DNA of 64,000 nucleotides from Heterotrichella gracilis (Eukaryota; Sar; Xanthophyceae; Tribonematales; Xanthonemataceae), in the NCBI GenBank assembly GCA_032358255.1, contig JAULBX010005442.1:1-64000 (forward strand), read 5' to 3'. This document shows positions 2,955 through 61,388 of this stretch, in pieces. The position numbers were made by a program, and so were the translations under genes. Numbering within the stretch: the first letter of the stretch is position 1; every line of letters starts with the position of its first letter. The notes beneath the pieces were generated by a model. That model searched no databases and was not told where the DNA came from. It was given only the letters and a program-made list of their open reading frames with translations.

Positions 2955-5900
2955 TCATACCCTCAAGCTGGCTGCAAACATCTCCCCCAGGTTGACCCAC
3001 CGGTACCCACACCTATCGCGCACCCCCTTGGCCACCGTAGCGGCAGGCCCCAGCACCTTCACCAACCCCCCGACATCGGCCTGGGCCTCAAATTTCGCGC
3101 CCCCCCGCCGCAGCCGCTTCAGGGCCCCTTCCACATCCAGCTGGCGGTGCAGGAATGCGATCTGGTTGTAGAGCGCCACCTCGCTCACCCTAGGGTGCAT
3201 GTGCCCCCCGGATTTAGGGTCTGGGGGGAGGGTTCCCGGGCGGCTGTCGCCGGATGACCTGTGGGGCAGGGGTGGGGTGGTGAGGCGGGAATAGGTGCGG
3301 GGATTGGAGTGGGGTGAAGAATTTGGGGTGCCCCTGATGGGAGACTCAATGTGTGGGGGGGTCCACATCACCTCTACCATGTCCACACCCACCTGATTAC
3401 CAATACAATGCTTGCTACTGGTGGCAAATGGACATTGCACCCACAATACCTGAAACCTGATACCCCCGGCTCACCTGAGGCACACGTTGCGCATCGCACC
3501 CGGCACCATCCCATCATCAGCCACCCCAAACCCTACAAATCCAAACCCTCACAAACCCTATACCCCCCTGGCTCACCTGAGGCACACATTTCATATCTCG
3601 CACAGCACCATCCCATCGTCAGCCACCCCAAACTCTACAAATCCAAACCCTAAACCCTTACAAACCCTATACCCCCCCCCTGGCTCACCTGAGGCACACG
3701 TTGCGTATCTTGCACAGCACCATCCCATCAATCAGCCACCCCAAACCCTCAAATCCAAACCCTAAATCCCTACAGTCCCAAATCCTTACACACCCAAAAC
3801 CTGGCGCACCTGAGGCATATGTTGCGCGTCTCGCACGGCACCATCTCATCATCCGACACCAGCCACCCCTCCGCAGCCACAGCCACAGCCTCCCGCACCC
3901 GCAGCACCACCTGGTTGGCCAGTTGGGCGGGGGTGAGGGGGGTGGCGGCGGTGGTGGTGGGTGCCTCGCCCTCCCCTGGCGGGGGGGTGAGCGCCTGGTC
4001 GAGTGTTAGCTCCCCCTTGAGGAGGGACTCTGCTCCCGGGAAGGGGAAGCGGGTGCCCGAGGGGGAGAGGAGCATGAGGGGGGTGCAGTCCTGCACGCAG
4101 ATGGGAGGGCATTCAGAGAACAAATTGACCCACAATTAAATTGACGCACAATATGATGTCCCTCCATGTTGCAAATGCCATGTACCAGATGGACGCCGCC
4201 TGAACCAACGTTGTTGCAGTTGTGATGTGAAGCAAGAACTAGTTCCCCCACAGATACAACTTGGTGTGACTATTAGACCATACCATCGCCTGACACACCA
4301 CGCAATGAAATGGTGGCCAAAGCACCCCCCACCCCCCACCCCACCCACCTTGAACCGCTGCTCGTCATCCAGGCAGGACCCCCCCGCCAGCTGCATATCC
4401 TCCTTCACCTCATCCACCCTGGGGCCCTGGGCGCCGCGGTACTTGGAGGCATCCAGGCCCAGGCACTCGGCCAGCCGGCCCGCGTCGGTGCCCTCAATGG
4501 GTGCGCACAGGCGGGACACCACGGGTAGCACCTGGGGTGGGGGGTGGGGTGGAGGGTAAGGGTTGGGGGTTGGGTTGATATTCAAGCACAGCTGCATGGG
4601 ATGCCGCATTGGAAAACATTCCAATGTGATGGAATGCACAAACGCCTCATTGTGCATAGGGAGTTGCATGATGCTGATCCAGCAGTATAGGAACTCCTCC
4701 TTGCATGCCAACGTCATAAACCGGCACTCCCAGGGTAATTATCCCTTGAGGAGGGCACCAAGCAAATATGGTAGAGGACATAGTAGACAGGAGAGCATTG
4801 CCCTTCTCTCTGCTAATTCCTCTTCCTTAACCAACGCGCTTGTTCAAGGACAGGCTGCGTAGCTATTTTTTTTTTTTTGCATGCCAACCATCGGGGCTGG
4901 CCACCAGCAACCACCCACCCACGCCACCCTGTCTGAACCCCCCACAGCACGCCACCCCTGCTTCACCAGTGGTAGCCCTGGTGGCCACAGACACCCCCAC
5001 CCACCCACTCCCCAATTCCCACCTGCTGCGCCAAGTAGTAGTGTGTGTCCACCCTCAGCTGGGGATTGGCCCGCAGCTCATCGGGATGGTAGGCCCTGTC
5101 TGCCAGCCCCGCCCCGCTGTCAGGCGCCGCCACCCCCCCCTCGCCATCCAGGGTCACGCAGATGACATAGGGTACAGTCTCACCCTGCAAGGGGAGGACG
5201 GGGACAAGGGTTTAGGGCAGGAGGTCAAAGGGACCCTAAAAGGGTTTATGTGGGTCAAGTGGGGTGTGTGGTGCATTTGTAGGGTACACTGGTTCCGAAG
5301 TCGCATGGGCGCTGTAGCATTCTCTCTCTCCACGCACCCACCGCCCATGCTGTATTCCCAGGTCCCCTCCGCCACGATATCACACCGCTCAAGCATATAG
5401 CAACACCATCACACACCCAGTGTCGCCACCCACCGGCATGGTCCCGTCCCGCTTGCCCGCCGCCTTGCGCCTGGCCGCCACCTGCACGTGCGGCTGGTGG
5501 TGCGCGTCGGGGTAGTCCTCGGGCCGCTTGGTCAGCTGCTTGGTGATGATGAACTTGTGCACCCCCAGCGCGCCAGAAACCAGCTGGGCAGCCACCTCCC
5601 TGTGGGGGTTGGGGTTTAGGATTAGGGTTCAGGGTTTGGTGAGCTGCTTGGTGATGATGAACTTGTCCACGCCAAGGGCACCAGACACGAGCTGGGCAGC
5701 CACCTCCTTGTAAAGGTTAGGGATTAGGGTCCAGGTTTAGGGTTTATTTGGTGAGCTGCATGACGATGTAGAATCTATTTGGCAGGGACACCGGTTAGCT
5801 GCGAAGGGTGGTGCAACCTAACAGTAATGATGAGGGTTTAGGGTTTATGTAATCAGCTGCTTGGCGATGACGACTTCTGGAGACCTGTGTGTAGTGGTGC

Positions 5901-8900
5901 AACCCACACAAGTCATGGCACAAACCAGCAAGCCCCACTTTCTCCCACCCACCCACCTGAGGTGCTGGTGCACCGCCTCCACCACCTCCTCGCACCCCCC
6001 GCCCGACAGGATCTGGCGCAGCGCGTAGTTGCCCACGTCCTTGGACAGGGGGCACCAGTCGCGACGCACGATGTCCAGACCCTTCTGCTCCATCACCTGC
6101 AACAGGGTGTAGGGTTTAGGGTTCAGGGCTGCAGGGCTAGGGTTTCGGTGCAGGTGTGCACAATGTCCAGACCCTTCTGCTCCATCACCAGTAACAGGGG
6201 TTTAGGTTAAAGGGTTTTAGGTTAAAGGGCCAGAATTTGGAGAGGGAACCATCTGTAGCGCACGATGTCCAGCCCCAATTACAACCCCATGTACGCCCCA
6301 CCAGCACATCATGCCATCCCCATCCTTCACATCATCCCCAAGCCTTCCAAAGCAGCAAATCACTTCACCTCCTCCCCTCGCTCACCTCATTACAGTACCT
6401 CCCCGCCGCATCCCGCTCCAGCTTCACCGCCGCGTACTTCTTCTTCTTGAGCAGCAGCATGCACTTGAACACATCGTCCAGCTCAATCTCCAGGCAGCGG
6501 TAGCGCTTGTTCACCTCGCGCTTGACAGCGGCCGCCAGCCGCAGCGCGTCCTCGATGGAGGAGCTGCGCGTGTTGACCATGATGGAGTCGGTGTCGCCAT
6601 AGATGACCTGCGGAGGGGTAAGGGTTTAGGGTTTGGAGGGTGTGTGGTTAGGGTTTGTGGGGTGAAAGGGACTGTGTGTTGACCATGATGGAGTCGGTGT
6701 CAGAATGTAACACATGCAGTGGGTGTAGAAGGGTTTTTGGGTTAGGTTTTAGGACGCCCTTTGCATATGGATTGCTGGGTTCTAGGTGCACTTTACCCAA
6801 CCCTAGGGTCTCCACCACCTCCAGCCCCATGGTTCTGGTCAGCAGGCCCACAGAAACCCTAAACCATTACCCCGACTCCACCCAACACCCTCCCCTAGGG
6901 TCTCACCTCCAGCCCCACACTATCCGTCGCCAGGTCCACTGTGCTCTGCAGGATCTCCCTTGCCCGGAACACCCACCCCCCAAAAAAACCTTCCCTAGGG
7001 TCTCACCTCCAGCCCCACTTTGTCCGTCACAGGGACCATTCAAGCCCCAATCCCAAAACCTTGACCTTTGACCAACCTAGTGCACTAGGGTCTCACCTCC
7101 AGCCCCACTTTGTCGGTCACCAGGTCCACCGTGCTCTGCAGGATCTCCCTGCCCTGGGCGGTGATGAGCTCCGCCAGGGGCTTGGCGTAGAAGCGCGAGT
7201 GCGAGAACCCCAGGCAGCCGTACATGGAGTTGGCAGTCAGCTTGAGCGCCTTCTGGCGGATGTCCAGCTGCTCGCGCTTGACGGGGTCGCGCTCGCTCTT
7301 GATCATGTCTTTCACCTGGCGGGGGGGGGGGGGGGAGGGGGGAGTGTGGGGACGAAGGCAGAAGCAGGAAGGCTGGGATTGCATTTGCATTTTGCATTCT
7401 TGATCATGTCTTTCACCGCAGGAAGGGGACGAGGAGCGCATTGGAGGGCTGAGGTTGCATACGGTATGCATTTAGGGGGATGGTTGTAAGGGTGCTGGTA
7501 GGCGCTGAGCAGCTGATTGGGAGCGACATGCTCAGGCATTCACATGCATTCAGCGGTCACTGGCGCTGGCATTCAACCAGCAAAGCCTTAACCCTGAATC
7601 ACAATGATTTGAGTAGTTTCTTACCTGGCGGCGGCGCTCGACCAGTGTCTTGATGACACGTGGCAGCACCGAGGTGGATTCAGCTGTGGGCTCTGGCAGG
7701 GGAGGGATGGTGCCGTCCTGCGGAAGAGAACGGACCTGAGCGCTGCATGCACGGCATGGTGGGGGGGGATTCCACATGCCAAATGTACAGGGAGTGCAGA
7801 ATTGCTACACCATGCATGTGTCCCACTGCCCAGACACTCGCACGCCACCAAGGAAATCACCCTACATGAACCCTCTTAAATCAACACCACCCACCGTTCC
7901 TCCAAAACCCTGAGCCACCAAGGGCAATACATAAAATATTTGTCCTACCATTATCTTAGAACCCTTGGAGCCACTAGGGACCACCCACCTTTGGCCGCTG
8001 CACCGTTGTGAAGCAGATGTCGTACTCCTGGATGATGGAGGGGTACAGCGAGTTGAAGTCAAGCAGCAGCACCAGCTTGTCATACAACCCCTTCTTGGGC
8101 TCAAGCACCAAGCCCCCCGCGTACTGCGGCCCCTTGCCCCCCTTTTTGGGGTCGGCTGCTTTCTCCCCCTGGAGGTCGTCCAACTCGGCTGCGTCGGGGT
8201 CGTCCTCGGCTGCCCGCTTGGCCAGGCGCTCCTTGTCCTGCAGGTAAGGGTTCTTAGTTATGGCTTAACTAAACCCACAGGTGATTGAATCCGCAGGTGA
8301 TTGAATCTTACATAGGGTTTTAACCTAGGGTTTTGGAGCAGGTTGTATGGGCAGATGCAAGCTCACAGAAGGAGGCTTTGTTGACACCTTGCAGGGTTAG
8401 CAGGTCACCTTGGCCAGCATCACTAGCAATACACCCTGGTGGAGGGTTTCCCCTGCCCCCAAAACCCTAAGGCCCTCACCTTGACCGACAGCTTGTCTGG
8501 CAGCATGTACTTGCGGTCGTGGAAGGCGTGCATGAGCAGCATCTCAATGCGCTGCGCGCGCTGGCCCTGCAGGGGGGTGGGCGACATGGGGTGGATCGAG
8601 GGTGGGGCGCAGAGTGGGGTGGCATGTGGTGGAGAGGAGTGGGATTACAATTGGAGGGCGCGTATGGGGTGCGTGGGCCGTTCACATGGGTGTGGAGGGG
8701 CGGGGGTGTCAATGCAGCATTGAAGTGATGCAGGTGTGTGGGGTGTGCGCAGCAGGGATGCTCAACCCTAGAGCAAGGAGCCCCAAATGCCATCATTCAC
8801 CCTCCACATGCCAGGCTGTGCCAGGGTTTAGTTTTAGGGTCCCCACCTGCAGCGCGCGCGACCACCTTGTCCCGCTGAGCTGGCTGAGCTGCAGGCTGAG

Positions 8901-11900
8901 CGGGAGCACGCTGAGGTGGAACATGAGTCCCAGGGACAGGAAGGCGTCGGACTGCGCGTGCTCAAGCAGGCTCATCAGCTTGGAGGAGCTGTCGAACTTG
9001 CCTGAAAAGGGGGGTGGGGATATTAAATTGCAAGGGTGTGACGGGGGAGGAAATTCCTCAGCTTGGAGGAGCTGTCAAATTTGCCTGGAAAGGGCAGTAA
9101 ATTACGGGGAAACGAAGGGGAGGGGGGGGTTAGGGGAAGGTGGTACAAGCCGAGTGCTGCGGGAGGACGGCTGCACAGTGTGGGGTCAAGGGCGCCGCCA
9201 CCAGTGGTGCAGGATCAGGGTCTGCATGATGCGACAGACATTTTCCCGTCCCCCCCCAAAACACATTTGCACCCCTCTACCCCACCTGGTATGTCAGTGA
9301 CCGACAGCTCCCCCCTCCTCTCCCCCAGCAGGTTGGCAGCCAGCGTGGTGAGTGTGTAGTCAACCTCGCGCACAAGCTCACGGGAGCAAAGGTAGGTGTC
9401 GCACAGCAAGCGGCCTGGGGGGTGGGGGGTGGAGGATGTGGTTGTGAGTGGGTGGGGGTGGGGGGGGAAGTGGGTACTGTGTTGGCATTCACCCAAGGGT
9501 ACCGGTGGGGAGAATGGTATGTGGCACAATGCGAATCTGCGCTCACATCATGTGGCGACAACACCTTGCCGGGCCCGGTGTGAAACAGATGCAATTCACA
9601 GCACGTTCAATACAGCAGGATTACAGTGCTTTAGGGATTGTGGGTAGAATTTGGCATCACCTGCGGTTGCCAGCATGAGCCCCGGGGATGCCCCCCCCCC
9701 AAACATCTTGCCCCCTCCTGACATGTCGGGGTACTTGGAGCGCTTGAGGCGACCGATGCGGCTCCACTGGGGGACCTGCACCAGGAGCATAGATTTGGCG
9801 TCACAATCTATGGCGTCACAATAGGGGTCAAAATTAGATGACAGTCCGCATCGCCTTTGCAAATGCACAATTGTCAATGCCAATGACCCACCCACAGCCC
9901 CACTAGGTACCAGCCAGCGCACACACCCAAACTCCTCCCCACCACCACCTCCCCCATTGTGCTCCTGCATCCTGTGCATGAGCACATCCAAATCAAACGC
10001 CGCCACATTTGCGTCAGATTTGAATGACATTTTGCATGGCATTCACAGGAGGACTGTTTCACAGGAGGGTCTTTTCACCTTGTGCTGCTGCATCCTGTGC
10101 ATGAGCACATCCAAATCAAATGCGGCCACATTGTGCCCCACAAACACATCGGCATCCACCCCCCGCAGGCGCGCCAGCAGCCATGCCAGCAGGGAGCGCT
10201 CGCTGCCCTGCACGCTGTACATCTGGCCACCGTTCATCTGGCCCAGGGCGCTGGCGTTCGCCTCGCGCACCAGGGTCTCAAAGCCTGCGGGGCACATTTA
10301 GGGTGTCGGCTGTGGATGGGCTTTAGGGTTTAGGATGTGCTTCAGGTGGTGCTGAAGCCTGGAGGAAACCATGACATCACGATCAGGGACATATCAAAGT
10401 GCGGAGGGGTTTTCAGATGTTTGTGTGCTGCAGGGTTTCTTATGTTTGTGTGCACACATTAGAACAAGCATCCCCCAGCACCCATGGGCCCACCGGATGA
10501 CTAGGGTGTGTGTGTCGCATGTGTCGCACCTGGCGGGAATGGCTGGTTGTTGAGCTTGCGCACCACCGAGAACTGGCGGATGCGCGCGGGGCTGCGCCAC
10601 TGGTCGTTGGTCACGGGGCCGTCAATGGGCACCTGCAGGTCAGGGTGTAGGGTTTAGGGTTTAGTTGGCAAGTGGGGAGCGTAGCTGCATGTAACCCTCA
10701 ATAGCCAATCCACAAGGCAATATCCTAGCAGAACTTGGAACCCTCCAGACCCTACCCGCCTTGTCTAAGGCAGCCACGATGCACCCTCATAAATCCCTTT
10801 TCCAGGTACAGCATGCTGGCGGCCACAACCCTTAACCCTAGTTAACACCCTACTACCCTGGAAAGAACCCTCCTGCCCCAGAAAACCCCCCACACCCCCA
10901 CCCACCTTGTCCAGGTACACCACGCTGGCGGCCACCACCTCATTGGTGGTGGTAGCTGGGTTGAGCATGGTCTTGAGGCTGATGGCGGCCACGGTGAGGG
11001 GTGGCGCCTCCATGCTGCTCACTGCGTGGCGGTGCTTGGCGGTGAGCAGGTGCTTGGCTGAGGGGATCTCCACCTCCAGCTTGCACCAGGAGACCTGGGT
11101 TGGGGTAGGGTGGTGGGTGTGGGAGGGGTGATGGGTAGTGGCGGTGGTGTGGTGGGTGCCAGTGCCCACCCAGAAGAAGGCATGGGGCCACATGTTGGTC
11201 ACTTCAACCGCGTGTGGAGGATAAGAATGACCCCTTTTACACTTTTATGGAGGGTGGGAATGACGCATCCTTTATAATCGTATCAAGGACCATTTGCAGA
11301 CGTTCTGGCTGTACTGCTGGAACACATTAAGTTCAGACGACCACAGGTATCCACCTCCACCCTCCCCTCACCCTAAACCCCCCTCACCTGCGCCTCCTGC
11401 GCCACCCCCACCGCCCCCTTGAGCGCCACCCAGCTGGGCCCCATCACCCGCCGCTTCAACATCACCCCCTCCAGCGCGCCCCCGTTGCTCCCCAGCACCT
11501 CCACAAACCGCTCCCCCCTGGCGCCCAGCGGGATGGCGGGGAGGGCAGCCGAGTACTTGACCTTGAGCACCCAGGAGGCGCCACGTGGCACGTTCTCGAG
11601 TTCGAACCCATAGGAGCGCTTGACGGGGCGCATGGTGAAGTTGGTCACCCCTGCCGCCATGAGCACCTGGCCAAACTCCTGCTTGAGGTGGAAGGCCTTG
11701 TCCTGCGGAGTGGGGGGTGGGGGTGTGAGGGGAGGGGAGCAGAGAGGAGGGTTTAGGGTGTCTTCCCTCATGCATGTGGGGATTGGTTCGGAGGTGAATA
11801 GAGATTCAGGGTGTTATCCCACGTCTGCATGTGGCGGACCAGCAGTCCCATCCCTAGTTGATGCTATACCAATCTTGAGTTGAGGATTGGCGATGTAGGG

Positions 11901-14900
11901 TCAAATACCTGTTGGGTTGTAGGTTCGCACTCGCCCTCAAGTGGCACGCCATCAGCTGGTTCACTTATTGCTATACACTAGTTGGTAAATTACTTGGAAC
12001 ACATAGGGGTCCAGGTGTTAGGTTTTTTTCCTCACCTGCATGTGGCGCACCAGCAGCCCCTTTTTTGAGGGGTCGCGCGCAGCCTGCGCCTCCAGCCGCG
12101 CCACCTCCCCGTCCCCATCCTCAAACACGTCCCCCCTGGGCACCACCATCAGGGTGCGCATGAGCCCCTTCACCACGCAGCAGCAGGACAGGAACTGGCC
12201 CTGGTGGCGGACCTGCAAAGGAGGGGGGGTAAGGCGAGGTTTGGAAATGCTAGCCAAAATTGTGATCTGTAAACCGCACACTCTCAAGATCCGCAGCCCC
12301 CATCTCATCTCTTACACCCACCCCCTCAACCAGGAACTCAAAGTGGAAATGATCAACTTCATGATGTAATTGTAACAGCACATGCTTTTTTAAATGATAT
12401 TTTATATGGTGATGCTGGCATCAATTTGGCCCACCTTTCCAAACAGGTACACCCTGTCCGCCTGCCCGGGCTCCTCATGCGCATCCACCATGTAGAACCG
12501 CACATTGCCCTCCTCATCCACAGGAAGGTCGCGCATAACACCCTCCCCTTGCGCCGCAGCGCTGGCCGCAGCCGCTGCATCCACCATGGGTGAGTCCACT
12601 GCTGCAGACATGATCTGCTGCCACCCCGGGGCGGGGGCCAGTGTGGCGGGTGTGGCGGGCTGCTGGAACATGGGTGGGGGGGTGCGGAAGGGGGTTTTGG
12701 TGGCGAGGGGCTGGGTCTCGGCAGCGGGGGGTGGCGCGGGGTCGACCTGAGGGGGGATGGGTGGGTATTGGTGCAAGCTCTGGTGGGTGACACCCAGTCT
12801 TGTGATGGCACCAATAGTGCAGGATGTGATGAATGCCCAGGACTGCAGATCGCAACCAAAACCATGTCCATGTGACGCTGTTCCAGGATTTGCACACCTG
12901 GGCTGCTACCACCAAACCCTGTACACCGTGCCGCATGAGCAATGCCACATCATATCATGCCCTCCCCTCCCCTATTCCCCACCTTTGCCCCTCCTTATGC
13001 CATCACATGTTACACACCCTCCCCTCCCCTCCACCCACCTTGACCTCCTCCTCCCTCTCCGGCTCCATGAAGCGCACCCCCTTCACAGCGCTGCAGGGCT
13101 CAGCAGCGGGTCCCTCCCCGTCATCCAAGTTCCCGCTGCCCTCACCCCCCTTGCCCAAAGCCATGGGCGCAATTTCGGGCGCAGCTGCATCGGGCTGGCT
13201 CTCATCCATCGCCTCGATTTCCTCCCCTGGGTTGTGGTAGCCCCCTGCAGGAGGTGGAGGGCGGGGTGGCCGTCAGCTTTTAGGCGGATGGTGTACTAGG
13301 TGGGCAGCATGCAACCCGCATAACCCGTTTCTGATTTGCTAGACTTCATTTTTCCCTTTACCATGGAGGGGTTTGGCAAGCCAATGGCGGTGAAGGGGTT
13401 AGGATTAGGGTTTTAGGTTTGGCAAGGCAATGGCGGTGCCTATGTGACAAGGGCACAAGGAACGTATGTCCCACTCCCTCACATGCACTGACAGCAAGGT
13501 GGTCAGAGAAAGGGGGGGAATGTTACCATCATCGTGAGCATCGTAGGAGGGAGGGTTGGCGCCCGGGGTTTCCTCGGCAGTATCCTCATCATACAGCGGC
13601 ACCATGGGGCGGGGGGCATGGGGTGGTCGAGAAACGGGGGTGGAGTAGCTGGTGGGGGTGCCCACAGCGCCCGCCATGTGCGCCCCGGAAGAACCCTTGG
13701 CTAGGGCAGCAAATGGCCTGGCGGGGTGTTCCCTGCATCGGGCCATGCATCCAAGTCAGCCTGGGTGAGACGGCATGAGGGATTGGCCCCAACAGTGTAT
13801 GAGCCCACCAGTGCATGGAAGGTCTTGACTCAGCACTGCATGGCAATGACAATGCCAAGCTGGCTAGGGTATGCCATCCACGAAACAGTCCAGGAGGTGT
13901 ACAGATGGCATGCATGAATGAGTCCCGTTGCGTCATCCCCAGTATTTCTTCCCAGAAGCCATGCAATCGCACCCCACACTGCGCACAACATAGCCAGACA
14001 TCTCTATCCCTCCCCTGCCCCTTCATCCCACCACCGCCACCCACCTTGACCTGTTTCCTGCCAGCACACTCAGCGGGCGCCTCTGCGGCTTGGCAGCCTC
14101 CCTGCACGCAGGCACAGCACATGAGTGAGGTGGCAGCCGACAAGTATGGAGCTTGGAGTACCAAAATGGAGCAGGGGCTATGGCAGCGCCGAAACCCTAC
14201 ACCAGTTATTGGCATGACCCATTGCGCACTGCAGCCGCGCCTCTGAAGGCAGTGACTGCCAACCTCACTCGGTGACAAGGGCACTTACAATACTGACAAC
14301 CAACCAAGGGGACTGCGGGTGGGCACGTACGCGATGGGAGTGTCTGACCCCAGCTCAGCCAGGATGTCCTCCAGCAGGTCGTCTGAGGAGACGTTGGTGG
14401 TGGGGGGTGCAGGGGCGTGCGCTCTGGGGGCGCGGGCTGAGCAGGAGGCAGGGGCAGGAGTGAGTAGCTGTGCCATGGTGTGGTGTGTATGCATTGATTT
14501 GCTGTGTGTGGGTGCACGGTGGGTGTGAAGTTGGTGGTGGTGCAGGTGGGTGGTGGGTGGAGGGGGAGCTCAGGCAGAAGAGAGGCATCTGGTGTCGGGT
14601 CTGGGCGTGCATACCTTGTGCTGCAGCAAACAGCTTCTGCATCCTGTGCTTGTGTCCCGGTGCAGGCTCCTCAGCAGCCTTCTTCTTGTTGCGCTGGTTC
14701 CCTGGATACAAGTGGTAGGAAGTGGGTATAGTGGGCGAGCAACAGAACCCCTGCCCACAGGCACCCACACATCCACCAGGCAGAAGCAACAACAGCCACC
14801 TTTGCAATGAGTTGCAAAGGTGGGTGTGTCTCTCTGCTGACTCTTCCAAGCTGGGGGTTTGCATGATAGAGGTCATTGTGGAATGGTTACCTGGTGGGTT

Positions 14901-25465: not shown

Positions 25466-25503
<38 letters not shown>

Positions 25504-43914: not shown

Positions 43915-44045
43915 GGCGGACTGCACAGCAGGCTCAACTGTTTAGGTTTTAGGGTTTGGTGCGCACTGGAAGGTGCACAAGGCAGACTGCACAGCAAGCT
44001 GAACTGTTTAGGGTTTAGGGTTTGGTGCGCACTGGAAGGTGAAGC
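43895..44045 (+). repeat. 66-bp tandem repeat of the MYND 3' coding end
   Basis: The segment encoding AHWKVHKADC plus stop and a TTTAGG(G) tract recurs with a 66-base period at 43895, 43961 and 44027 (last copy partial). TTTAGGGTTTAGGG at 44007-44025 joins copies 2 and 3. This is the same exon-edge echo pattern, here at a gene's 3' end. Confidence 0.9.
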
Positions 44046-50855: not shown

Positions 50856-53800
50856 ATGCCCTTGCCTGCATGCAGCCATGGCGCCGCCGCCGCCGCCCCA
50901 CTTACCAATGGCACTGGCGACGATGCATGGCGCACGCTGCGCCACGAGCCCGGCATGTGCGCCATGTATGGCCTGTGCGGCCACCGCAAGGACCACGACG
51001 TGCTCAACTGCCCGGCCAACACACCCGCGCAGGGGCTCACCGAGGGGGCCTACAAGAAGCTGCAGGAGGTGAAAACCCTAAACCCTATGTCCCATACCCT
51101 ACACCCACATTTGCGCATTCCATATCCTACGCCTGGGACCCTACACCCCATACCCGGCAATTCCACACGCACTGCACCCTGTTGCCACCAGGCGCAGCTG
51201 TCCACGCATGTGCGATTAGGGTATTGGATAGCCATGTCACTGAGTCAGACTGAATGGCAGTGTGGGTGGCGATGTGCATATGTCATTGAGTGTAATTCTG
51301 AACCTCTTCAAAAACGCTCCCCTCTAGGTGCCCTCTAGGTACGTAGGGTTTGGTAAGGGCACAACCAGATTACCCTTGCGGCATAAGGTTGCAAGGGTTT
51401 CCTCACTGCCAGGCACGCGGCAATTTAACACAGGATTTACTGCGCATTCGTATTAATTGCTTGCCCATGTACAAAAACCTTCCTGCTCAAGGGGTGTGTG
51501 CGTGTGCAGGTGTGTCCTCAGCTGAGTACCGAGGCGGGGGGTGCGGGGGGCATCTACTGCTGTACTGAGCAGCAGATCGACCAGCTGCAGAAGCAGGTGG
51601 GGGCTGTGTGCATATATAGCTATATACATTACCACAGCTAATCTGGCATTATCGCTGGAACGCATGTAAGTAAGTAGGTTTTTTGTTCCCGCATTAAATC
51701 CACCCCGCACTAAATTCCCCCCGCACATCCACCCACACAAATCCAGATGGCCAGCATTTTCCTGGTCGGCTGCCCCGCATGCAACCACAACCTCAAGCAC
51801 CTCTTCTGCACACTCACCTGCTCCCCGGACCAATCCACCTTCACCAACATATGTATTTATAATCGTAACTGTAAACCCAAAACTTANNNNNNNNNNNNNN
51901 NNNNNNNNNNNNNNNNNNNNNNNNNNNNNNNNNNNNNNNNNNNNNNNNNNNNNNNNNNNNNNNNNNNNNNNNNNNNNNNNNNNNNNTCCTCCCCACCCAT
52001 CCCCCCATACAGATCCAGATGGCCAGCATCTTCCTGGTTGGCTGCCCTGCCTGCAACCACAACCTCAAGCACCTCTTCTGTACACTCACCTGCTCCCCGG
52101 ACCAATCCACCTTCACCAACATATGTATTTATAATCGTAACTGTAAACCCAAAACTTATTCATTTTGTTTGTTGATTCCGGTACTTATTCCTCCCCACCC
52201 ATCCCCCCATACAGATCCAGATGGCCAGCATCTTCCTGGTTGGCTGCCCTGCCTGCAACCACAACTTCAAGCACCTCTTCTGCACACTCACCTGCTCCCC
52301 GGACCAATCCACCTTCACCAACGTGACAGCTGTCCAGCAAGCGACCGACAACGCCACGCTGACTGCGGTGGCTGAGGTGGCGCACTACTTGTCGGCGGGC
52401 TTTGGCCAGGCGTTCTATGACTCGTGCAAGGTAGGGTAGGGAGAGGATCCAACATGCACACGCCAAACATGATGATGGTGCTTCTGTGCTCTCAAATGGC
52501 CAGGCGTTTATGACGCCTGCAAGGTAGGGGGCGGGGGAGAAGGGTGGAGGGGCTTGGCACCACGCATTCTGTGGCGGCATCAAGGGTAATAAGATAGTCA
52601 AAAGTCCTATATATATTTTTGTTACCCAAAGGTTTGGCCAGGCGTTTTATGACTCGTGCACGGTAGGAGGAGCGGGACAGGGGTGAGGGGTGGAGGGGGG
52701 CTTGACACGCACTCTGTGGCGGCATCAAGGGTAATAAGATGATAAAAAGTCCTATGTGTTTCTATATCATCCTTGACGGGATGAAGCGCAGGGGTGCTTC
52801 CTTGTGCCCGCACACATTGCAAATGCTGACAATATCAAGTGCCACAAATGCTATCACCCTGTGTCACAGGATGTGATCTACCCCGTCACCAACCAGAGGG
52901 CCATGACGTTCATCGGGGGGGGTGCCACAAATTTCCAGCAATGGCTGGATTTCCTGGGGCTCATCAAGGACAAGCGATTCCCCCCCGCGGGCTCCCCATT
53001 CCAGATCGATTTCCCCCCCGAAGACCAGACCCCCCCTGAAATGACACCCTTGAGGGAGCAAATTCCCACCTGCTGGGACCCCAATTTCAAGTGCTCGTGC
53101 GGGGACTGCCCAGAGGGGCCCCAGTGTGCGCCGGTGCGTGGGTTTGATTGTCCTTGGCTACAATGACTTCAAATGCGTGCCCCAATGGTGTAAAATACTG
53201 CATACATTGGTCAATGTATTTCACATATACATGCACTACCCTGGTGTCGCGCATGTGTACAGTATTGCAAATGCACTGCAAATGCATGGCATGCTCATGC
53301 GATTGCAACCATGTGCATTTGTGACGAGTGTGTCACCCTTTGCTCTCCTGTGTGCAATTGTGAGTCTCCCTGAAGGCCCTACAACCCCCCTCCCCTGCTG
53401 CAGCCCCCCCCTCCCCCCCCTCCCAAGGGCCGCGGCTGCACCCCCCTTGGCATCCACCCCTCGTCCTGGGTGTCATGCCTGGACATCACCTACCTGGTAA
53501 TGTACCTGGCCACACTGGTGGTCATCGCGCTGTTCTCACACAAGGTGCGGAGTTTAAATCCTAGATAACCGTTAACCCAAGGGGTATGTCACCTGGCCAT
53601 GTCCCTCCCCACTCTTGTTCCCAAAGGTGTAGGAAACCCTATGCTAGAAAATTGAAAACCCAACCTGTGGTCACACTGGTGGTCACTGCACTCACAAACC
53701 CCTGAACGTAAACCGTAAACCCTAAACCCTAAGGCACCAAACGTACAACCTCACCCCCACCCCCGCAGGCCACCCGCATCGAGCACAGCCTGAAGCGGCG

Positions 53801-56800
53801 CGAGCTGAGAACCCTCCTAGGGTTGACCATGACCCGCCACACTGCGCTTGAGCCGCTGGTGTTGGACGATCAGGGGGGGGCAGGGGAGGAGGAGATTCCC
53901 TCCCCTGGGCTGACCATGTATGACGATGCGCGCTACCCCCCCTTGGAGACATTCCTCAGGGCGTGGTTCGAGCGCCAGGTGAGGGACAGGGGTATTGTCG
54001 AAATATACCATTTAGCTATTACAATCATGTAATTTACATGTTATATTCACAACAAGAAATATCTGCCTTTTATGCATGATGATGTACGGTGCAGGGTTGA
54101 TTGCCCATTCTGGCTGTACTGCTGGAATGCAAGTAGCTAAATTAAGTACATCATGGTTGATAATACCATCGCCATCATTGCTTGAATTTGTTTTTACATT
54201 CCATTATCTCCCTTGCAGGGTGAGTGGTGCGCCCGCAACGCCTGGATCGTGCTCGCCCTCTCATGCGCCCTCATCGGGGTTTTATCCCTGGGGCTGCTAG
54301 GGTTCAGGGTTGAGACTGACCCTCAGAGGCTGTGGGTGGGCAAGGGGTCAACAGCAGCAAGGGAGAAAGCAGACTACGAGGTGAGAGGGGGTAGCGGGGA
54401 TGGTGGGGGAAGTCGAGAGGGGTTTAGAGGGATTCGCCCGCCGCTGCTTAGATTTGCGGCTTGCGGCTATCAGAGTACGAGGTGAAAGGGATGAAGTGTC
54501 GGAAGTGGGGAGGGCAGCGTGGAAATGCACCTGCCCTTCTGAGATCTGCGGATTGTGGACGTCAGGGTGAACGCTACATTGCTCCAACGCTGCCGGGCAC
54601 CATCCATCCCGCACATTCCGCAAACCTTCAGTAGACTTCCAGCAAACTTTCAGCAAATCTTCTCACCCCCTCCCGCAGGCCTCATTTGGCCCCTTCTACC
54701 GGATAGAGCAGCTCATACTGAAGACCACCCCCGACACCCCCTCCTATTACATCTCCCCTTCAGGCCTCCCCGCCATTGTCACGGATGACAACATCCAGCT
54801 GCTGTTTGACATGCAGCAACAGATTGACCAGCTGGCAGCAAAAGTGGGGAATGGGGTCGTGACGCTACAGGTGGGTGTGGCTTGGGACCAAGGTTTAGGG
54901 GCTTCACAAACCCTGTCCAACGCCCCTTGGCAATCCTCTAGGGTTATTGATTAATTGGCTGCCATGGCATGCATGGCCAGATTGATGAATGGCAGGGCAC
55001 GTGGGGCCAAAAGGGGGTGAGGCGGTGACGCTGGAAGCGGGATAGGGATTTTGGGACACCTGTTGAGCGTTTTTCACAAACCCTGTCCAGGATTGCAATA
55101 AGCCCCCTTGGTAGAGGAGAGGGCTCACACAATAGCCAGCCCCCACATCCACCCTGCAAACCCATCCCGAGGTTGTCCATCCATGTGTCTCCTGCCTCCC
55201 CCTCCCAACACATCCACTCAACCCCCACAGGACGTGTGTTTTAAGCCCTTTGGGGAAGCCTGCGCCACCCAGAGCGTGCTGCAATACTGGAAAATGGACA
55301 AGGACATTTACACCCACGGGGAGCCCCCCTGGTACACGAAATTGTCCCCTGATTTCTGCTTCAGCCATTGGTCGAGCCAATGCAGGTGCGGAGGGTGGAG
55401 GTTTGAAACCTCACCGGTAAACCTTAACCCTGGGTAGCCCAAACCCAAGTGGTAACTGTAACCAACTACGTGTCTCTGTATTTCCTCCCCATGCAAGCCC
55501 CTGAGGACCAGCACTGTGTGCCCGAGTCCCCACCAAAACCCTCACAAAGATCGAATTGCCTCGGCACTGGAAAACCGTAAACTCCAAACTAGCTTCAGCC
55601 CTAAGCATCGACTCGCCTCTTCTTTATTCTCTCCCTATGCAATCCTTTAAGGCCATGAATTTGTGCTCAGACACTTGGCAAAAACTTTATCAAAGCCCTT
55701 ACCTCAAGACATGCTGCCAGAAACACCCCAACTTGCACCTCCTTTTTCACCCCCTGTTGACTTGTTTGCCCCCCTGGCAGGAGCGCATTCAAGGGCCCCA
55801 TTGACCCCCACCTGGTGCTGGGGGGCTTCCCTTCAGATGACTCATTCAGGAATTTCTCGGCCGATGCAACATCATTTGTGGTCACATTTCCAGTGGACAG
55901 CTTGGAGGGAAACAGGTGGGCATCCCGATGCCACAATATGGTTTTGAAGTGGGCCATACACCCTACATGGTTTCATTATGGCCTGGACCCTGTGTATTAT
56001 GTGATATTGGAATCTATGTGTAATTCAGGCCTGATTCTACCCCCAAAATACACCTCATTGTCATCACCTGATACACCCACACCCACTCCCCTCGCACCAC
56101 CCCACCACACCCGCATCCCAACCACCCCCCACCCTGCAGGGCGGCTGCTTTAGCCTGGGAATCTGCCCTCGTCACCCTCGCCACCACCACCCTCTCCCAA
56201 ATGGCCGCCTCCGCCAACCTCACCCTCTCCTTCTCCACCGAGAGGTCCATCCAAGACGAGCTGGCACGCGAGTCGAGCGCTGACATCAGCACAGTCGCCC
56301 TCTCCTACCTGGCCATGCTGGGGTACATTACAGTGGCGCTGAGCAGCTGGCCGAGGGGGGGTGGGGGGTGGCGGGGGCTGGTGGTGCACAGCCGGGCGGG
56401 GCTGGGGCTGGGGGGTGTGACGGTGGTGGCGGCGGCGGTGGTGGGGGCCATGGGGGTGTGCAGCGGGGCGGGGATGTGGTCCACGCTCATCATTATGGAG
56501 GTGGGTGGGGGGTTGGGGGGTTGGGGTGGGGATGTTGGGGGGTATGGGGGTGGGGTTGCAGCAGGACGTGAAAGGAATGGCAGCAAGGGAGATGTCAGTA
56601 CTTGGTTTGGAAGAAACAAAGTGTCTGGGGACGAATGGAGGTTGTGGTTGGTGTGCTGATTGCATGTTCGAATTGAGGGTATCCCTATACAAAATCCGCA
56701 CGTCCCATTACAGTCCTGGTCCTGGCAGTGGGCGTGGACAACATGTTCATTATCACACACCCACTCCAGCTACAAGACGCATTTCTGCCCTACCCAACCT

Positions 56801-59800
56801 CGCATCTCTCACCGCATGCCATCTCCTCCCTTGTCTGCCAGTCCGAATCCTCAGATTATGAATTATATCCACAATTCATAAATATAGCCCACAAAATCCA
56901 TGCCCCGCCATCGCAGGTGATCCCCTTTTTGGTCCTGGCAGTGGGCGTGGACAACATGTTCATTATCACACACGCGCTCCAGCTACAAGACACAGCCCTG
57001 CCCCTGCCCCGAAGAATGGGACTGGCCCTAGCCGCAGCGGGGCCCTCCATCACCCTGGCATCAATGTGCGAGGTGGCTGCTTTTGCCATCGCTGCGCTCA
57101 CTCCCATGCCCGCTGTGCGCAACTTCTCGATAGTGGCGGCGTGGGCGGTGGCGCTGGACTTCCTACTACAGGTCAGTGGGTGTGGGATGGTGTGGCTTCA
57201 CTGGGTATAGGTGGGTGGGTGGGTGGGTGTTGCTCTGCCTTTGGTGGTGGTGGTGGTGTGTGTGGGGACTGCCCTGATTTTAAATTCTTCTTTACCGTTT
57301 GACCCCCCTTTTCCTCCCCAGATCACCCTCTTCGTGGCGCTACTCACCCTGGACACCCAACGTATCGAGGAGGGGAGGTATGATTGCGCCCCCTGCTGCA
57401 CGGCCCCCTCGCCCCCTCCGGAGCCAAATGAGACGAATTTGGGGTCGGGATACCAGGGCCTGCCAGACATGGCGACCTCCTCGTTTGACTCGGCTACTCT
57501 TGCCTCCCTGCGACCGCAGGTGGGTGATGTGACCAAGGGCGGGGCATGTAATGGGTAGTGTAGAGAATTAGCATGTAACGGCATTCCGCATTGGCAAAAT
57601 TCCTGACAGACAGTAAATGTTGCACGCAATTGTCTTGCACCAACATAATGCACTGTAATGCTTGTAATCAAGATTATCCAAAACCATTTAATCAACATAC
57701 TGCATTGTAGTCCAGCCCCACGTGGTATTCGTATCCAGCCCCCATGGTGATGCAGGTGTCAGTGATCAACTGCCTCAAGTAGTACATGTCCAATGGTACA
57801 AGTAATTAGCCCCAAATGGTATAAGTGATTAGTTCCAAATGGTGAATGTAACCAGCCCCCATGGTGATGCAGGTTTCAGTGATCAACTGCCTCAAGTTGT
57901 ACTTGTCCAATGGTACAAGTAATTAGCCCCACATGGTACAACTAATTAGTTCCAAATGGTGAATGTAACCAGCCCCCATGGTGATGCAGGTGTCGGTGAT
58001 CAACTGCCTCAAGTGGTACTTGTCCAATGGTACAAGTAATTAGCCCCAAATGGTGAATGTAACCAGCCCCCATGGTGATGCAGGTGTCAGTGATCAACTG
58101 CCTCAAGTGGTACTTGTCCAATGGTACAAGTAATCAGCCCCAAATGGTACAACTAATTAGTTCCAAATGGTGAATGTAACCAGCCCCCATGGTGATGCAG
58201 GTATCAGTGATCAACTGCCTCAAGTGGTACATGTCCAATGTGCACGCCCCCCTGCTGGCGCGGGGGGTGGTGCAGATGGCTGTGCTGGCGCTGTTTGCGG
58301 GGGGGTTCTTCCTGTCACTGGCAGCCATGCCCAGGCTGGAGAGGTAAGGGTGTGGGGTGCAGGGTTTAAGGTTGAGGGTTTAGGGCTTTTTCTGTCCTGG
58401 GACAGCCATGCCTGACTTGGATAGGTACGGGGTTAGTTTTCTTGCTGCAACGTACCTAGGGTAAAGGGCGTCAGGGTTTTAACAAATAAATACCATTTCT
58501 AGGCAACAGGCAATAGGAGATGCCATCGCATCGTGGCATCTCCTTAACCCTTCCATTTCCGGCGCACAGGGGCCTTGAGCAGCAGACGGCCCTGCCCCGC
58601 GACTCCTACCTGCAGCACTACTTTGGGGATGTGCTGGGGCAGCTGCGCGTGGGTCCCCCCCTCATGCTGGTGGTCAAGGGGATGAACCTCAGCCGGGAGT
58701 CGCCGCACGTCAACAGCATCTGCAGCACGTCGGTGTGCAGCGACGACTCGCTGCTCAACCAGGTGAGGGTGGGGCGGTGGGTTCAGGGTTTAGGGATCAG
58801 GGTTAGGGTTTGGGGTAGGTGCAGGGCTTTGTGGTGCAGCAATTGCTCACTGCTGAGTCATGTGAGGGTGAGAAGGGTTAAAGAGTGAGGCCGCCTGACC
58901 GGTGCCCTCCTATTATTAGACCAGCCGCATATTCATTGCCCACATATTTCCCACGCTACCCCACTCACCGCCACCACTCATCCCTGCCACGCACCCACAC
59001 CCCACCTGCAGGTCTCCGCTGCAGCCCGCACCCCCTCCACCACCTACATAGCCACCCCCGCATCCTCCTGGCTCGATGATTACCTATCGTGGATCAGCCC
59101 AGAGATACCCCAGTGCTGCCGCACGTGGCCCAACGCCACCCACTGCCCCCCACCGGACCAGCCGCCGTGTGCTGCGGCAAGCCACCCGTGTGCATCATGT
59201 GGGGTGTGCTACCGCGCCACTGGGCCGGCGGGGGGGGATTTGCTGGAGGGGGGGCGGCCGAGCGTGGAGCAGGTAGGCCGGGGTTGTACAAGGAAATATA
59301 TTACAACTAGAAAACAAGAACCTCTCCTGGGATGATTTTGGTGTAGGGTGGACATTTGTGGAGATCTGAAGTGTGGTGATTGCATTGTTTGGGGCCCCAG
59401 GGTAGGGTTTATTGCTTGCGTGGGGCCCATGTTATAGGGTGTATTCTCCAACCCTGGAAGTCAGCGCTCTGTTGCGTGCAAGGGGTTCTCGCGCACAATA
59501 TAACCATTTTATTGACCACTCAGCTGCCCTCATTCCCTCCCGTTTTTGGGCCCCGGACCAGCAAGAAGTCTTCCCCTGGCACTCATTCCCTCCCCACGTT
59601 CTCTCCCGCAGGTGCAGGTGTCGCTCCCCTGGTTCCTCCAATCGGAGCCCTCCGAGGAGTGCGCCAAGGGCGGCAAGGGGGCATACGAGGACTCGATACA
59701 ACACGTAGGAGGGGACAGGGCCAGCGTGGCGGGGTTGGATCAAGGGGTGGTGGCGGCGGCAAGCTTTAGGAGCAACTACGTGCCGTTGTCCAAGCAATCG

Positions 59801-61388
59801 GATTTTATTGAAGGAATGGAGGTAGGCGCGTGTTGCTAATCAGATGCAATGTTTGTTCTCGGTTGTTCTAGACTTGGCCCTGGACTTCACCTTAGCCATG
59901 GAGCTGGGTGCATGTGATTGATTAGCAGCAATCACACGGATGACTGGCCATGATTGCATGTGATTCACCCTCATCCCCGTCCGCAGGCTGTGCGCAAGCT
60001 GGTGTCCCACGCGCGCGCCACCCTGCACCTTGACATCTACCCCTACTCCATCTTCCACATCTTCTTTGAGCAGTACCTCACCATCGTGCCCGACGCAGCC
60101 CGCCTGCTGGCGGCCGCCTGGCTGGCCATGCTGGCGGTGACGTGGGCGTTCACAGGGAGCGCGTGGGCGGCTGCGGTGGTGTGCGGGGTGGTGGGGCTGG
60201 TGGTGGTTGACCTGGTGGGGGCCATGGCTGCGTGGGGGGTGCAGCTGAACGCGCTGTCGCTGGTCAACCTGGTGATGGCCATGGGCATCGCGGTGGAGTT
60301 CTGCGCGCACCTCACGCACTGCTTCATGGTCATGCCAGGTGGGGCCAAATCCCTTGATTAGGAACCCTAATCTAGGGTAATGGCGCAACAGCTTTCGTCA
60401 GGGTGCGGTTTGGTTAGGGTGTAAATCCCTTTCGGTTGGAGGAGCAAGGGTCGGTTGGCATGATGCATGTGGAGGGTGCCATGACGGGAGCGTCATAGCT
60501 GACCACCTTGCAGTGACAAAACCTAACTTCAGTGGGGGGCATGTGTGTGCCCGATCATCGCATACATTGGCCCCATTGCATATACCCCTCCACCCCACCA
60601 CCCACAAAACCCCAAGAGTCCTTCCTGTGAAAACCATTCGTGGCCAGCATTGTGGCACCTTGAACGACACCTGGGGCAGCACCCGCACTCGCTCCCTTCC
60701 ATCATCTGCCTGCATGTGCACCACTCCCCCCATCCCCCGTAGGCACCCGATCGGAGCGCATGGCCGAGGCGCTTGAGGATATGGGTGCATCGGTGCTGAG
60801 CGGGATTACGCTCACCAAGTTTGTAGGTGCGTGTGGGAGCAGGGCCTTGACGCCGGTGTGGGGGCCTGGGGGGGCAGTGTTGGTTGGTGGGTTAAAGTGT
60901 TTGGTTGCAGCAAAGGCTTGAGGGCTCTGTATGGCGCTCCAGCTGGTGCATGGTGCATGTGTGTCTGCATCACTTCAAGTTGTGCCCAGGAGCAATGGCA
61001 ACCTCTTGTGCATGCAATCTGCTAGGCAGGTCTTGCCGGCCGCAATTCCACCCTTTCCCCGCATGCTGGGCCTAACACCCCACCCCTCCCGTCCCTCTCA
61101 CCAGGCGTGGCAGTGCTTGCCTTTGCCCACACCCAGATCTTCGAGGTGTACTATTTCAGAATGTACCTGGCACTGGTGCTACTAGGCGCGGCGCACGGCC
61201 TGGTTTTCCTCCCCGTCATCCTGTCGCTCATAGGCCCCCCTGCGCTGGAGCACCCCCGAGCCAGGACCTCCACTGCCTCGCTGTATGTGGCTCCCGAGGC
61301 GGGGTTCACCCCCTCAAGGGCGTCGTATGACAATTTAAGTCAAGGGAGGGTCACCCCAAGGAGGGTTTCCTACGATGACCTGCAGTGA
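50856..61388 (+). CDS. NPC1: Niemann-Pick C1 sterol transporter, 20 exons found
   Basis: Polytopic RND-family protein that moves sterols out of lysosome or vacuole-like compartments. Exons: 50856-51068, 51510-51596, 52215-52430, 52870-53133, 53404-53544, 53769-53978, 54219-54380, 54679-54870, 55231-55385, 55781-55915, 56140-56500, 56917-57171, 57322-57519, 58201-58343, 58570-58762, 59012-59272, 59612-59821, 59987-60338, 60743-60826, 61105-61388; 1,371 codons, all in phase. The Cys-rich luminal sterol-binding domain is residues ~30-265 ([34 protein letters not shown]), then a Pro-rich linker and TM1. The sterol-sensing domain is ~635-865 ([20 protein letters not shown] spans an intron). The C-terminal RND half has [12 protein letters not shown] and GITLTKFVG. 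Odd: no signal peptide in the first exon found, so a 5' exon is missing from my model. Introns carry many echoes, and one has an assembly gap. Confidence 0.94.
51743..52214 (+). repeat. Two extra copies of NPC1 exon 3 5' part
   Basis: The segment encoding [25 protein letters not shown] occurs at about 51745-51886 and 52015-52188 before the functional exon at 52215. Copies 1 and 2 share the same 3' extension (ATATGTATTTATAATCG...), and copy 2 to the functional copy has a 200-base period. Identity is above 95%, so the triplication is young. Copy 1 lacks a CAG acceptor; copy 2 has one. Confidence 0.92.
51887..51986. other. 100-N assembly gap
   Basis: Exactly 100 N inside the exon 3 repeat array; a placeholder of unknown true length, probably caused by unresolved tandem copies. 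Confidence 0.98.
52412..52775 (+). repeat. Donor array of NPC1 exon 3 with hairpin remnants
   Basis: The exon 3 donor edge (TTTGGCCAGGCGTTCTATGACTCGTGCAAGGTAGG, functional at 52411-52437) is echoed near 52498-52530 and 52631-52667. The last two copies are each followed by TGTGGCGGCATCAAGGGTAATAAGAT (52571 and 52713 on), remnants of the hairpin element seen intact at 37245. Confidence 0.85.
54466..54487 (+). repeat. Echo of NPC1 exon 7 donor
   Basis: Short copy of the GACTACGAGGTGAGAGGG donor junction at 54370-54388. Confidence 0.45.
54978..55036 (+). repeat. Echo of NPC1 exon 8 3' part
   Basis: Diverged copy of 54810-54866 (CAGATTGA..A.CTGGCAG...GTGGGG...GTGACGCT). Confidence 0.55.
56711..56800 (+). 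repeat. Echo of NPC1 exon 12 5' part
   Basis: Copies the sterol-sensing segment GTCCTGGCAGTGGGCGTGGA to CTACAAGACGC of exon 12 (functional 56930-57000), about 217 bases upstream. Confidence 0.9.
57712..58200 (+). repeat. Acceptor array: four extra copies of NPC1 exon 14 acceptor and 5' edge
   Basis: CCAGCCCCCATGGTGATGCAG plus the first ~40 bases of exon 14 is repeated in tandem. Acceptor AGs end at 57755, 57872, 57989, 58083 and 58200 (functional); periods are 117, 117, 94 and 117. Spacers are GGTACAAGTAATTAGCCCCAAAT-type sequence. Copies are 95% or more alike. Confidence 0.95.
58381..58432 (+). repeat. Echo of NPC1 exon 14 3' edge and donor
   Basis: Diverged copy of 58302-58350, including the GGA-GAGGTAAGG-type donor. 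Exon 14 thus has echoes on both sides. Confidence 0.7.
58826..58870 (+). repeat. Echo of NPC1 exon 15 3' edge and donor
   Basis: Diverged copy of 58733-58771 (GTG.GCAGC.A...CTC.CTGCT...GTGAGGGTG). Confidence 0.55.

What the first reader, a model, noticed from the sequence alone, without database searches (positions are those of the whole stretch)
2955..61388. Window-wide 'exon-edge echoes': introns contain decayed tandem copies of neighbouring exon ends with their splice sites
In seven of the eight spliced genes (all but the MMACHC-like fragment), both strands, I found more than 30 intronic or 3'-flanking segments of 30-150 bases that copy the end of an adjacent exon across its junction, mostly 60-210 bases away, at all stages of decay from above 95% identity to barely visible. 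Donor edges, acceptor edges and gene 3' ends are all affected. Copies are in direct orientation and often separated by CCCTAAA/TTTAGGG-like DNA. Ordinary random tandem duplication should not prefer junctions this strongly. It suggests a recurrent local duplication process (template switching or break repair near splice junctions) that lengthens introns and supplies spare splice sites. The observation is direct; the mechanism is inference.
Basis: partly seen in the sequence, partly recalled or inferred. Interest (0 to 1): 0.8.

Follow-up and report, generated by a model that had tools for sequence, protein, structure and literature searches.

The report
Decaying copies of exon ends
In this stretch of what looks like a green-alga genome, about a quarter of the introns carry decayed tandem copies of the end of their own neighbouring exon, often next to telomere-like DNA, which suggests that introns here lengthen by repeated local DNA duplication at exon borders.

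Summary
With 105 exons modelled (core pieces of six of the nine gene models supported), 26 of 192 splice edges have a copy in the adjacent intron at score >=15, against 14 of 4640 non-adjacent pairs, 0 of 133 far edges and 1 of 77 exon middles. No exon position 110-200 nt from an edge is copied. The copies decay without constraint (mismatch .099/.100/.174 at codon positions 1/2/3, five stops), which argues against a haplotype artefact. Introns with copies are longer (median 410 against 292 bp).

The strict count is 26 of 28 (P 7e-4 at 65%); with every intron-only cluster it is 26 of 33 (P .07). A real bias is likely, not proven.

Telomere-like tracts are flanked by duplications more often than random sites (30/132 against 260/4000). 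Most likely mechanism: break repair or template switching at exon borders, perhaps seeded by telomere-like DNA. 'Spare splice sites' is not supported: 2 of 26 are usable in frame.

The parts
3463..3860 (-). POLA1 donor edge 3810 with three intronic copies separated by telomere-like DNA
5530..5873 (-). POLA1 acceptor edge 5599: copy at +108 (85%), a 21-nt remnant at +321
6047..6276 (-). POLA1 acceptor edge 6096: copies at +92 (93%) and about +180-194
6570..6723 (-). POLA1 acceptor edge 6607: copy at +106
6816..7157 (-). POLA1 donor edge 7097: copies at -90, -190, -278
8972..9094 (-). POLA1 acceptor edge 9001: copy at +83 (90%)
9957..10132 (-). POLA1 donor edge 10079: 53-bp copy at -123 (94%), spacer unlike the flank
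10801..10939 (-). POLA1 donor edge 10906: copy at -109
11810..12060 (-). POLA1 donor edge 12036: copy at -211
16774..16941 (+). VPS9 acceptor edge 16903: copy at -122 (93%)
17041..17274 (+). VPS9 donor edge 17109: copy at +182, ends 17 nt short of the edge
20487..20668 (+). VPS9 donor edge 20544: copy at +110/111; which copy is the real donor is ambiguous
21987..22201 (+). VPS9 stop-codon end: copy at +192
23006..23091 (-). Probable QRICH 3' end (not in the annotation used): 29-bp repeat around a telomere-like tract
24202..24565 (-). QRICH acceptor edge 24265: three copies, unit 104 bp
29371..29691 (-). HSP70 donor edge 29637: copies at -89 and about -266 to -279
31175..31417 (-). HSP70 donor edge 31348: copy at -172 to -188
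32202..32310 (-). HSP70 donor edge 32283: copy at about -84
32437..32716 (-). HSP70 acceptor edge 32502: copy at +207 (93%)
32965..33108 (-). HSP70 acceptor edge 33016: copy at +107 (81%)
33247..33469 (-). HSP70 donor edge 33421: decayed copy at -148 (67%)
33752..33887 (-). HSP70 donor edge 33845: copy at -87 (96%), telomere-like spacer unlike the flank
43895..44041 (+). DUF4470/MYND gene 3' end (reading frame unsettled): tandem copies, unit 66 bp with telomere-like tract
51688..52322 (+). NPC1 acceptor edge 52215: two copies (89-99%), 100-N assembly gap at 51887-51986
52401..52772 (+). NPC1 donor edge 52430: copies at +93 and +232, with a longer repeated intronic unit (52561/52706)
53507..53692 (+). 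NPC1 donor edge 53544: copy at +161, ends 13 nt short of the edge
56717..57003 (+). NPC1 acceptor edge 56917: 74-bp copy at -213 (92%), starts 13 nt inside exon
57714..58240 (+). NPC1 acceptor edge 58201: array of four further copies, units 94 and 117 bp
58309..58431 (+). NPC1 donor edge 58343: decayed copy across a telomere-like tract (found later, not among the 26)
58721..58870 (+). NPC1 donor edge 58762: decayed copy at +99 (71%)
13370..13438 (.). Clean intron-only example: 23-bp direct repeat around a telomere-like tract
36990..37124 (.). Second clean intron-only repeat (28 bp, +107)

Best explanation
The copies are genuine products of repeated local DNA duplication. A segment that straddles an exon edge (about 25-110 bp of exon, the splice site, often an adjoining telomere-like tract) is copied next to itself at an offset of about 66-213 bp, with or without unrelated filler. 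The exon copy stays under selection and the intronic copy decays neutrally, so one exon edge can give rise to several copies of different age and the intron grows. The likeliest chemistry is repair of breaks or stalled forks by backward template switching or synthesis-dependent repair, as in known repair-mediated duplications. Shown: the copies, their edge anchoring, neutral decay, longer introns, association with telomere-like tracts. Inferred: break repair; that telomere-like tracts act as break sites or as telomerase-extended ends; that edges are truly preferred.
For: 26/192 edges against 14/4640 non-adjacent pairs, 0/133 far edges, 1/77 exon middles at score >=15. Exon coverage .11-.13 within 40 nt of the edge, falling to zero from 110 nt on (200 nt examined), as expected of units of about 100 bp crossing the edge. 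Mismatch .099/.100/.174 by codon position with 5 stops.101/.101/.176 without the two genes and one exon of unsure frame or identity. Introns with copies 410 against 292 bp median, P 4e-4 (that script stopped with an error after printing these lines). Telomere-like tracts within 60 bp of an edge: 20/55 flanked by a direct duplication against 90/1125 random sites. In 9 of 26 pairs the spacer resembles the flank (p <.02, e.g. 20544, 32283, 29637, 16903), i.e. the tract seems to be part of the unit; in young pairs such as 33845 and 10079 it does not, i.e. filler.
Against: Junction preference over the selection-filtered null is strong only with strict exclusions (26/28); with all intron-only clusters it is 26/33, P .066 at a 65% null. 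At looser scores exon middles are hit too (>=13: 5/77, against 33/192 edges and 74/4640 non-adjacent pairs). 36/72 introns without copies also hold telomere-like motifs and 10/26 spacers hold none, so the motif is neither specific nor required. The nearer copy is the more similar in only 11/17 comparisons (P .17). Clusters and tracts sharing a gene, intron or array are not independent. No relative or long read was available.
Confidence: 0.6

Rival explanations
1. No edge preference at all: tandem duplications of about 100 bp arise uniformly; those inside exons are removed by selection, and those crossing an edge are easier to detect because the exon copy changes slowly.
For: Simulation gives 55-65% junction cases among detected ones without any preference (.49-.58). 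The decline of exon coverage with distance from the edge is what random-phase units of about 100 bp would give. With all seven intron-only clusters counted, P is .066 at a 65% null.
Against: Strict count 26/28, P 7e-4 at 65%. Among pairs with a segment of at least 25 nt at 90% identity or more, where intron-only pairs of equal age should still be visible, there are 14 edges (17 if 20-22-nt segments count) against 2 clean intron-only repeats. If the homologous unit is short with filler, the null falls to .36-.38.
Confidence: 0.25
2. Telomere-seeded variant of the best explanation: a break beside a splice site leaves an exon-side end carrying G-strand telomere-like DNA; telomerase or capping acts on it, the end re-invades about 100 bp upstream in the exon and copies it again, giving exon edge - telomere tract - exon edge.
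For: X-tract-X architecture: both flanks lie within 5 nt of the tract in 7 of the 33 cases listed at score >=15. The G strand points out of the exon in 15/18 tracts flanked by exon-containing duplications within 70 bp of an edge. Telomeric insertions at breaks, a few with direct target duplication, are described for the horse (PMC7215372, abstract and one section read).
Against: At donors the orientation bias against tracts without duplication is not significant (9:3 against 9:11, P .15), and at acceptors tracts without duplication also point outward (13:2), which splicing constraint on pyrimidine-rich acceptors could explain. 10 of 26 spacers hold no exact heptamer (e.g. 10079, 56917, 58201).
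Confidence: 0.25
3. Assembly or haplotype artefact: divergent haplotypes or contig ends stitched in tandem, with exons conserved and introns not.
For: A 100-N gap lies inside the NPC1 array 51688-52322.
Against: Mismatches at codon positions 1 and 2 are about .10 each, as expected of an unconstrained copy, with stops; regular multi-copy units; telomere-like fillers.
Confidence: 0.07
4. Selected function: spare splice sites or alternative exons.
For: 15/26 copies tested keep GT or AG; the gene finder picked four copies or parts of copies as exons.
Against: 2/26 usable in frame (20544, 58762); 10/26 offsets are multiples of three; neutral decay.
Confidence: 0.05
5. Intron birth by tandem duplication of exon sequence holding AGGT.
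For: Copies of exon ends lie in introns.
Against: In that model (recalled) the copy of the donor edge abuts the acceptor and vice versa; here the copy tested is 63-1075 nt from the other end of the intron in 26/26. Later lengthening could hide an old case.
Confidence: 0.03

Closest known systems
Repair-mediated duplication by capture of proximal DNA (Pace et al. 2009, PMC2671141; abstract and two sections read)
   Same: Closely linked duplications with filler (1-68 nt), microhomology and small target duplications, ascribed to synthesis-dependent strand annealing; exons and splice sites are among the sequences copied.
   Different: There 278 of 824 donors are intronic and 4 are partial exon/intron (their Table 2); here nearly all clean cases include an exon edge and many adjoin telomere-like tracts.
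Interstitial telomeric sequence insertion at double-strand breaks (Santagostino et al. 2020, PMC7215372; abstract and one section read)
   Same: Telomeric repeats inserted at breaks, at a few loci with direct duplication of the target.
   Different: Here tracts are short and degenerate, densest near intron ends, and the duplicated stretches are tens of bases long and repeated at the same edge.
Patch-mediated or paired-nick tandem duplications in plants (recalled: Vaughn and Bennetzen 2014; Schiml et al. 2016; not held)
   Same: Short tandem duplications with filler as a common repair product.
   Different: No exon-edge anchoring or telomere-like filler that I recall.
Intron creation by tandem genomic duplication (recalled)
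   Same: Exon sequence duplicated into intron.
   Different: Existing introns are extended; the copy does not abut the opposite splice site.
Introners (recalled; nothing read)
   Same: Recurrent intronic insertions in algae and protists.
   Different: No dispersed family: each copy matches its own neighbouring exon.

Membership tests
Repair-mediated local (tandem) duplication | Direct local copy of neighbouring DNA | tested here: met
Repair-mediated local (tandem) duplication | Filler or microhomology at the junctions | tested here: inconclusive
   Spacer unlike the flank in young pairs such as 33845 and 10079, but flank-like in 9 of 26 and lost in the N gap in one; microhomology not measured
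Repair-mediated local (tandem) duplication | Empty allele or ortholog without the duplication | not testable with these tools
   No relative found in four scans; no own genome
Interstitial telomeric insertion at breaks | Telomeric repeats flanked by target duplication | tested here: met
   30/132 tracts against 260/4000 random sites; met by a minority of tracts
Interstitial telomeric insertion at breaks | Telomeric array absent from the ancestral locus | not testable with these tools
   Tracts are degenerate; no ortholog
Intron creation by tandem genomic duplication | Copy of one exon edge abuts the opposite splice site | tested here: not met
   63-1075 nt away in 26/26
Alternative or mutually exclusive exons | Copy keeps splice sites and frame | tested here: not met
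   2/26; neutral decay

The most novel reading that the evidence does not exclude
Exon borders are true hotspots of a self-repeating duplication process in this lineage: telomere-like tracts kept at intron ends by splicing constraints seed telomerase-linked repair of the exon-side end, so that introns grow from their ends and carry a dated record of past breaks.
Probability: 0.2. Interest if true: 0.75.

Novelty: new variant of a known kind. Interest (0 to 1): 0.52.

Why it matters
How introns lengthen between transposon insertions is hard to date because intronic copies lose their source (my view, not a searched claim). Here the source, the exon, is preserved, so each copy can be dated and placed, which makes rate and position of short duplications directly measurable genome-wide. 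If the edge bias is real, it points to a mutational process tied to exon borders or to telomere-like DNA near splice sites.

Tried and rejected
Relatives: two scans of viral contigs (one search gave ten distant polymerase loci at 27-35% identity, none) and two of genome contigs (none) found no algal relative, so orthologous introns could not be compared. Rfam (gathering threshold) and tRNA searches of the window were empty.

First gene models were over-split and were discarded; the second run was corrected by hand using protein continuity. Four predicted exons that overlap copies (6907-6945, 16781-16807, 17238-17357, 29373-29423) were removed. The last QRICH exon (left out), the first RUVX exon (left out), the end of the DUF4470 gene (my model has an internal stop there) and the MMACHC frame (four stops in my set) remain unsettled. 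Dropping DUF4470 and the ambiguous VPS9 exon besides MMACHC does not change the codon-position result.

Self-blastn missed some near pairs found by the tandem-repeat finder (e.g. 20486-20692); an ungapped diagonal scan replaced it. Uniform template capture was set aside because far edges and exon middles are hardly copied at score >=15 (0/133, 1/77), although exon middles reach 5/77 at >=13. Spliced-RNA templates are unlikely: 15 of 26 copies continue into a splice dinucleotide.

Dropped before the strict 26/28 count: five intron-only clusters (17708 and 57167, identity .67 and .62 and low complexity; 42415 hexamer; 30299/30902, offset 603, terminal inverted repeats on the second copy; 52561, continuation of the 52430 array). 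With them the count is 26/33. The identities .61-.63 printed for 33016, 20544 and 52430 come from windows slipped by an indel and were not used. Masked low-complexity and telomere-like bases do not score as matches.

Literature: eight searches (one search returned nothing) listed no title or abstract start describing recurrent exon-edge copies in introns; Pace et al. name exons and splice sites among duplicated sequences. This covers only the held open-access library.
Full report
What the window is. The 64 kb window is eukaryotic: no whole genome is held, and it carries spliced genes on both strands. It is probably a green alga, from gene content, TTTAGGG-like DNA and a PPSPx repeat (recalled features, no database hit). 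I modelled 105 exons and 96 introns (median 316.5 bp) in eight spliced genes and one single-exon gene. The 1164-residue C-terminal part of the polymerase matches polymerase alpha chains over residues 8-1160 (best E 1.6e-222; the printed alignment was cut before its end), so it is POLA1. Core pieces of NPC1, HSP70, VPS9, RuvX and DUF4470 match Pfam; the single-exon gene does not. The N-terminus of POLA1, QRICH and MMACHC were not checked against families.

The observation. An ungapped scan of all offsets 16-700 gave 99 segments at score >=18 where far offsets predict 0.9. Clustering at >=17 gave 46 clusters outside the minisatellite at the window start. Twenty-eight of these, at 26 splice edges (15 donor, 11 acceptor), link an exon edge to a copy in the adjacent intron. 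Three lie at certain or probable gene 3' ends; 23006 is at a probable last exon outside my annotation and 43895 at an end whose frame is unsettled. A separate gapped test of the terminal 60 nt of each exon against its own intron found 26/192 edges at score >=15, against 14/4640 for non-adjacent introns, 0/133 for the far edge of the same exon and 1/77 for exon middles. The two lists of 26 share 25 edges. At looser cut-offs the contrast shrinks (>=13: 33/192, 74/4640, 1/133, 5/77). Exon positions have a copy in 11-13% of cases within 40 nt of the edge, falling to zero from 110 nt on, 200 nt being examined.

Real, and decaying. Over 1972 comparisons at 1402 exon sites the mismatch is .099.100 and .174 at codon positions 1, 2 and 3, with 5 stop-creating changes; leaving out the genes and exon of unsure frame or identity gives .101.101 and .176. 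Positions 1 and 2 measure neutral decay of the copy; the extra at position 3 fits synonymous change in the exon. Two haplotypes of a coding exon would not differ like this. Splice dinucleotides survive in 15/26 copies and only 2/26 could be used in frame. The 24 introns with copies are longer than the 72 without (410 against 292 bp).

Is there a preference for junctions? The right null is not uniform duplication but uniform duplication filtered by selection, with slower change in the exon copy. Simulated on 71 echo-free introns, that null yields a junction fraction of .55-.65 for full tandem units and .36-.38 if the homologous part is short and the rest filler (on all introns gave .49-.58). 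Observed: 26/28 with only clean intron-only clusters (13370, 36990), P 7e-4 at .65; 26/33 with all seven intron-only clusters, P .066. At 90% identity or more over at least 25 nt there are 14 edges. I therefore hold the preference likely but unproven. These tests treat clusters as independent, which shared genes and introns weaken.

Telomere-like DNA. Such heptamers cover five to seven times more intronic bases than in shuffles and are densest within about 60 nt of intron ends. Within 70 bp of acceptors nearly all tracts have the C strand in sense; at donors both orientations occur. Of 132 tracts 30 are flanked by a direct duplication, against 260/4000 random non-coding sites; within 60 bp of an edge it is 20/55 against 90/1125 (tracts in one array are not independent). 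In 9 of 26 pairs the spacer resembles the flank (p <.02; telomere-likeness of both sides may contribute), as at 20544, 32283, 29637 and 16903, so the tract seems to be part of the duplicated unit. In others it is a filler unlike the flank (33845, 96% identical exon part), and 10 of 26 spacers hold no exact heptamer (10079, 56917, 58201 among them). Also 36/72 introns without copies hold the motif, against 18/24 with copies, P .036. So telomere-like DNA is associated but neither necessary nor sufficient.

How it most likely works. A break or stalled fork near an exon border is repaired by copying the adjoining DNA again, with occasional filler. Selection keeps the original splice site in use, the new copy decays, and the event can recur at the same edge. 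Arrays with two or more copies show the nearer copy as the more similar in 11/17 comparisons, in the direction of growth from the edge but not significant (P .17). Human repair-mediated duplications (PMC2671141) and telomeric insertions at breaks (PMC7215372) supply each element separately; I read their abstracts and the sections. The edge bias and the joint architecture are what I did not find in print in the eight searches named under Tried and rejected.

Limits. One window, one unnamed strain, no transcripts, no relatives. One array contains an assembly gap. Real and copy are told apart by protein continuity, which is good for the cores of POLA1, HSP70, NPC1 and VPS9 but ambiguous at VPS9 20544.

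Noticed in passing
window 1-490, - strand: Minisatellite (period 15/30/45) that reads on the minus strand as an open (PPSPx)n repeat, like green-algal cell-wall proteins (likeness recalled).
   Followed up: partly
window 30299-30422 and 30902-31025: Two 124-bp copies (93% identical) 603 bp apart in one HSP70 intron; the second has short terminal inverted repeats (GGGGGTTTGTGGT...), so perhaps a small DNA element.
   Followed up: partly
window 37238-37300, 52574-52630, 52719-52775: Three related elements starting CAAGGGTAATAAGAT in introns of two genes; the first is a near-perfect palindrome.
   Followed up: no
window 37586 and 45653: Two introns that appear to use GC rather than GT donors.
   Followed up: no
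window 43546-43960: The MYND-like finger at the end of the DUF4470 gene is split between two reading frames; a frameshift, missed intron or sequence error.
   Followed up: no
window 51887-51986: 100-N assembly gap inside the NPC1 exon-edge array.
   Followed up: no
introns window-wide: AAACCCT is the commonest 7-mer in introns apart from N; CCTAA and CTAAA peak 20-60 nt before acceptors, so telomere-like DNA may double as branch-point sequence (functional reading is inference).
   Followed up: partly
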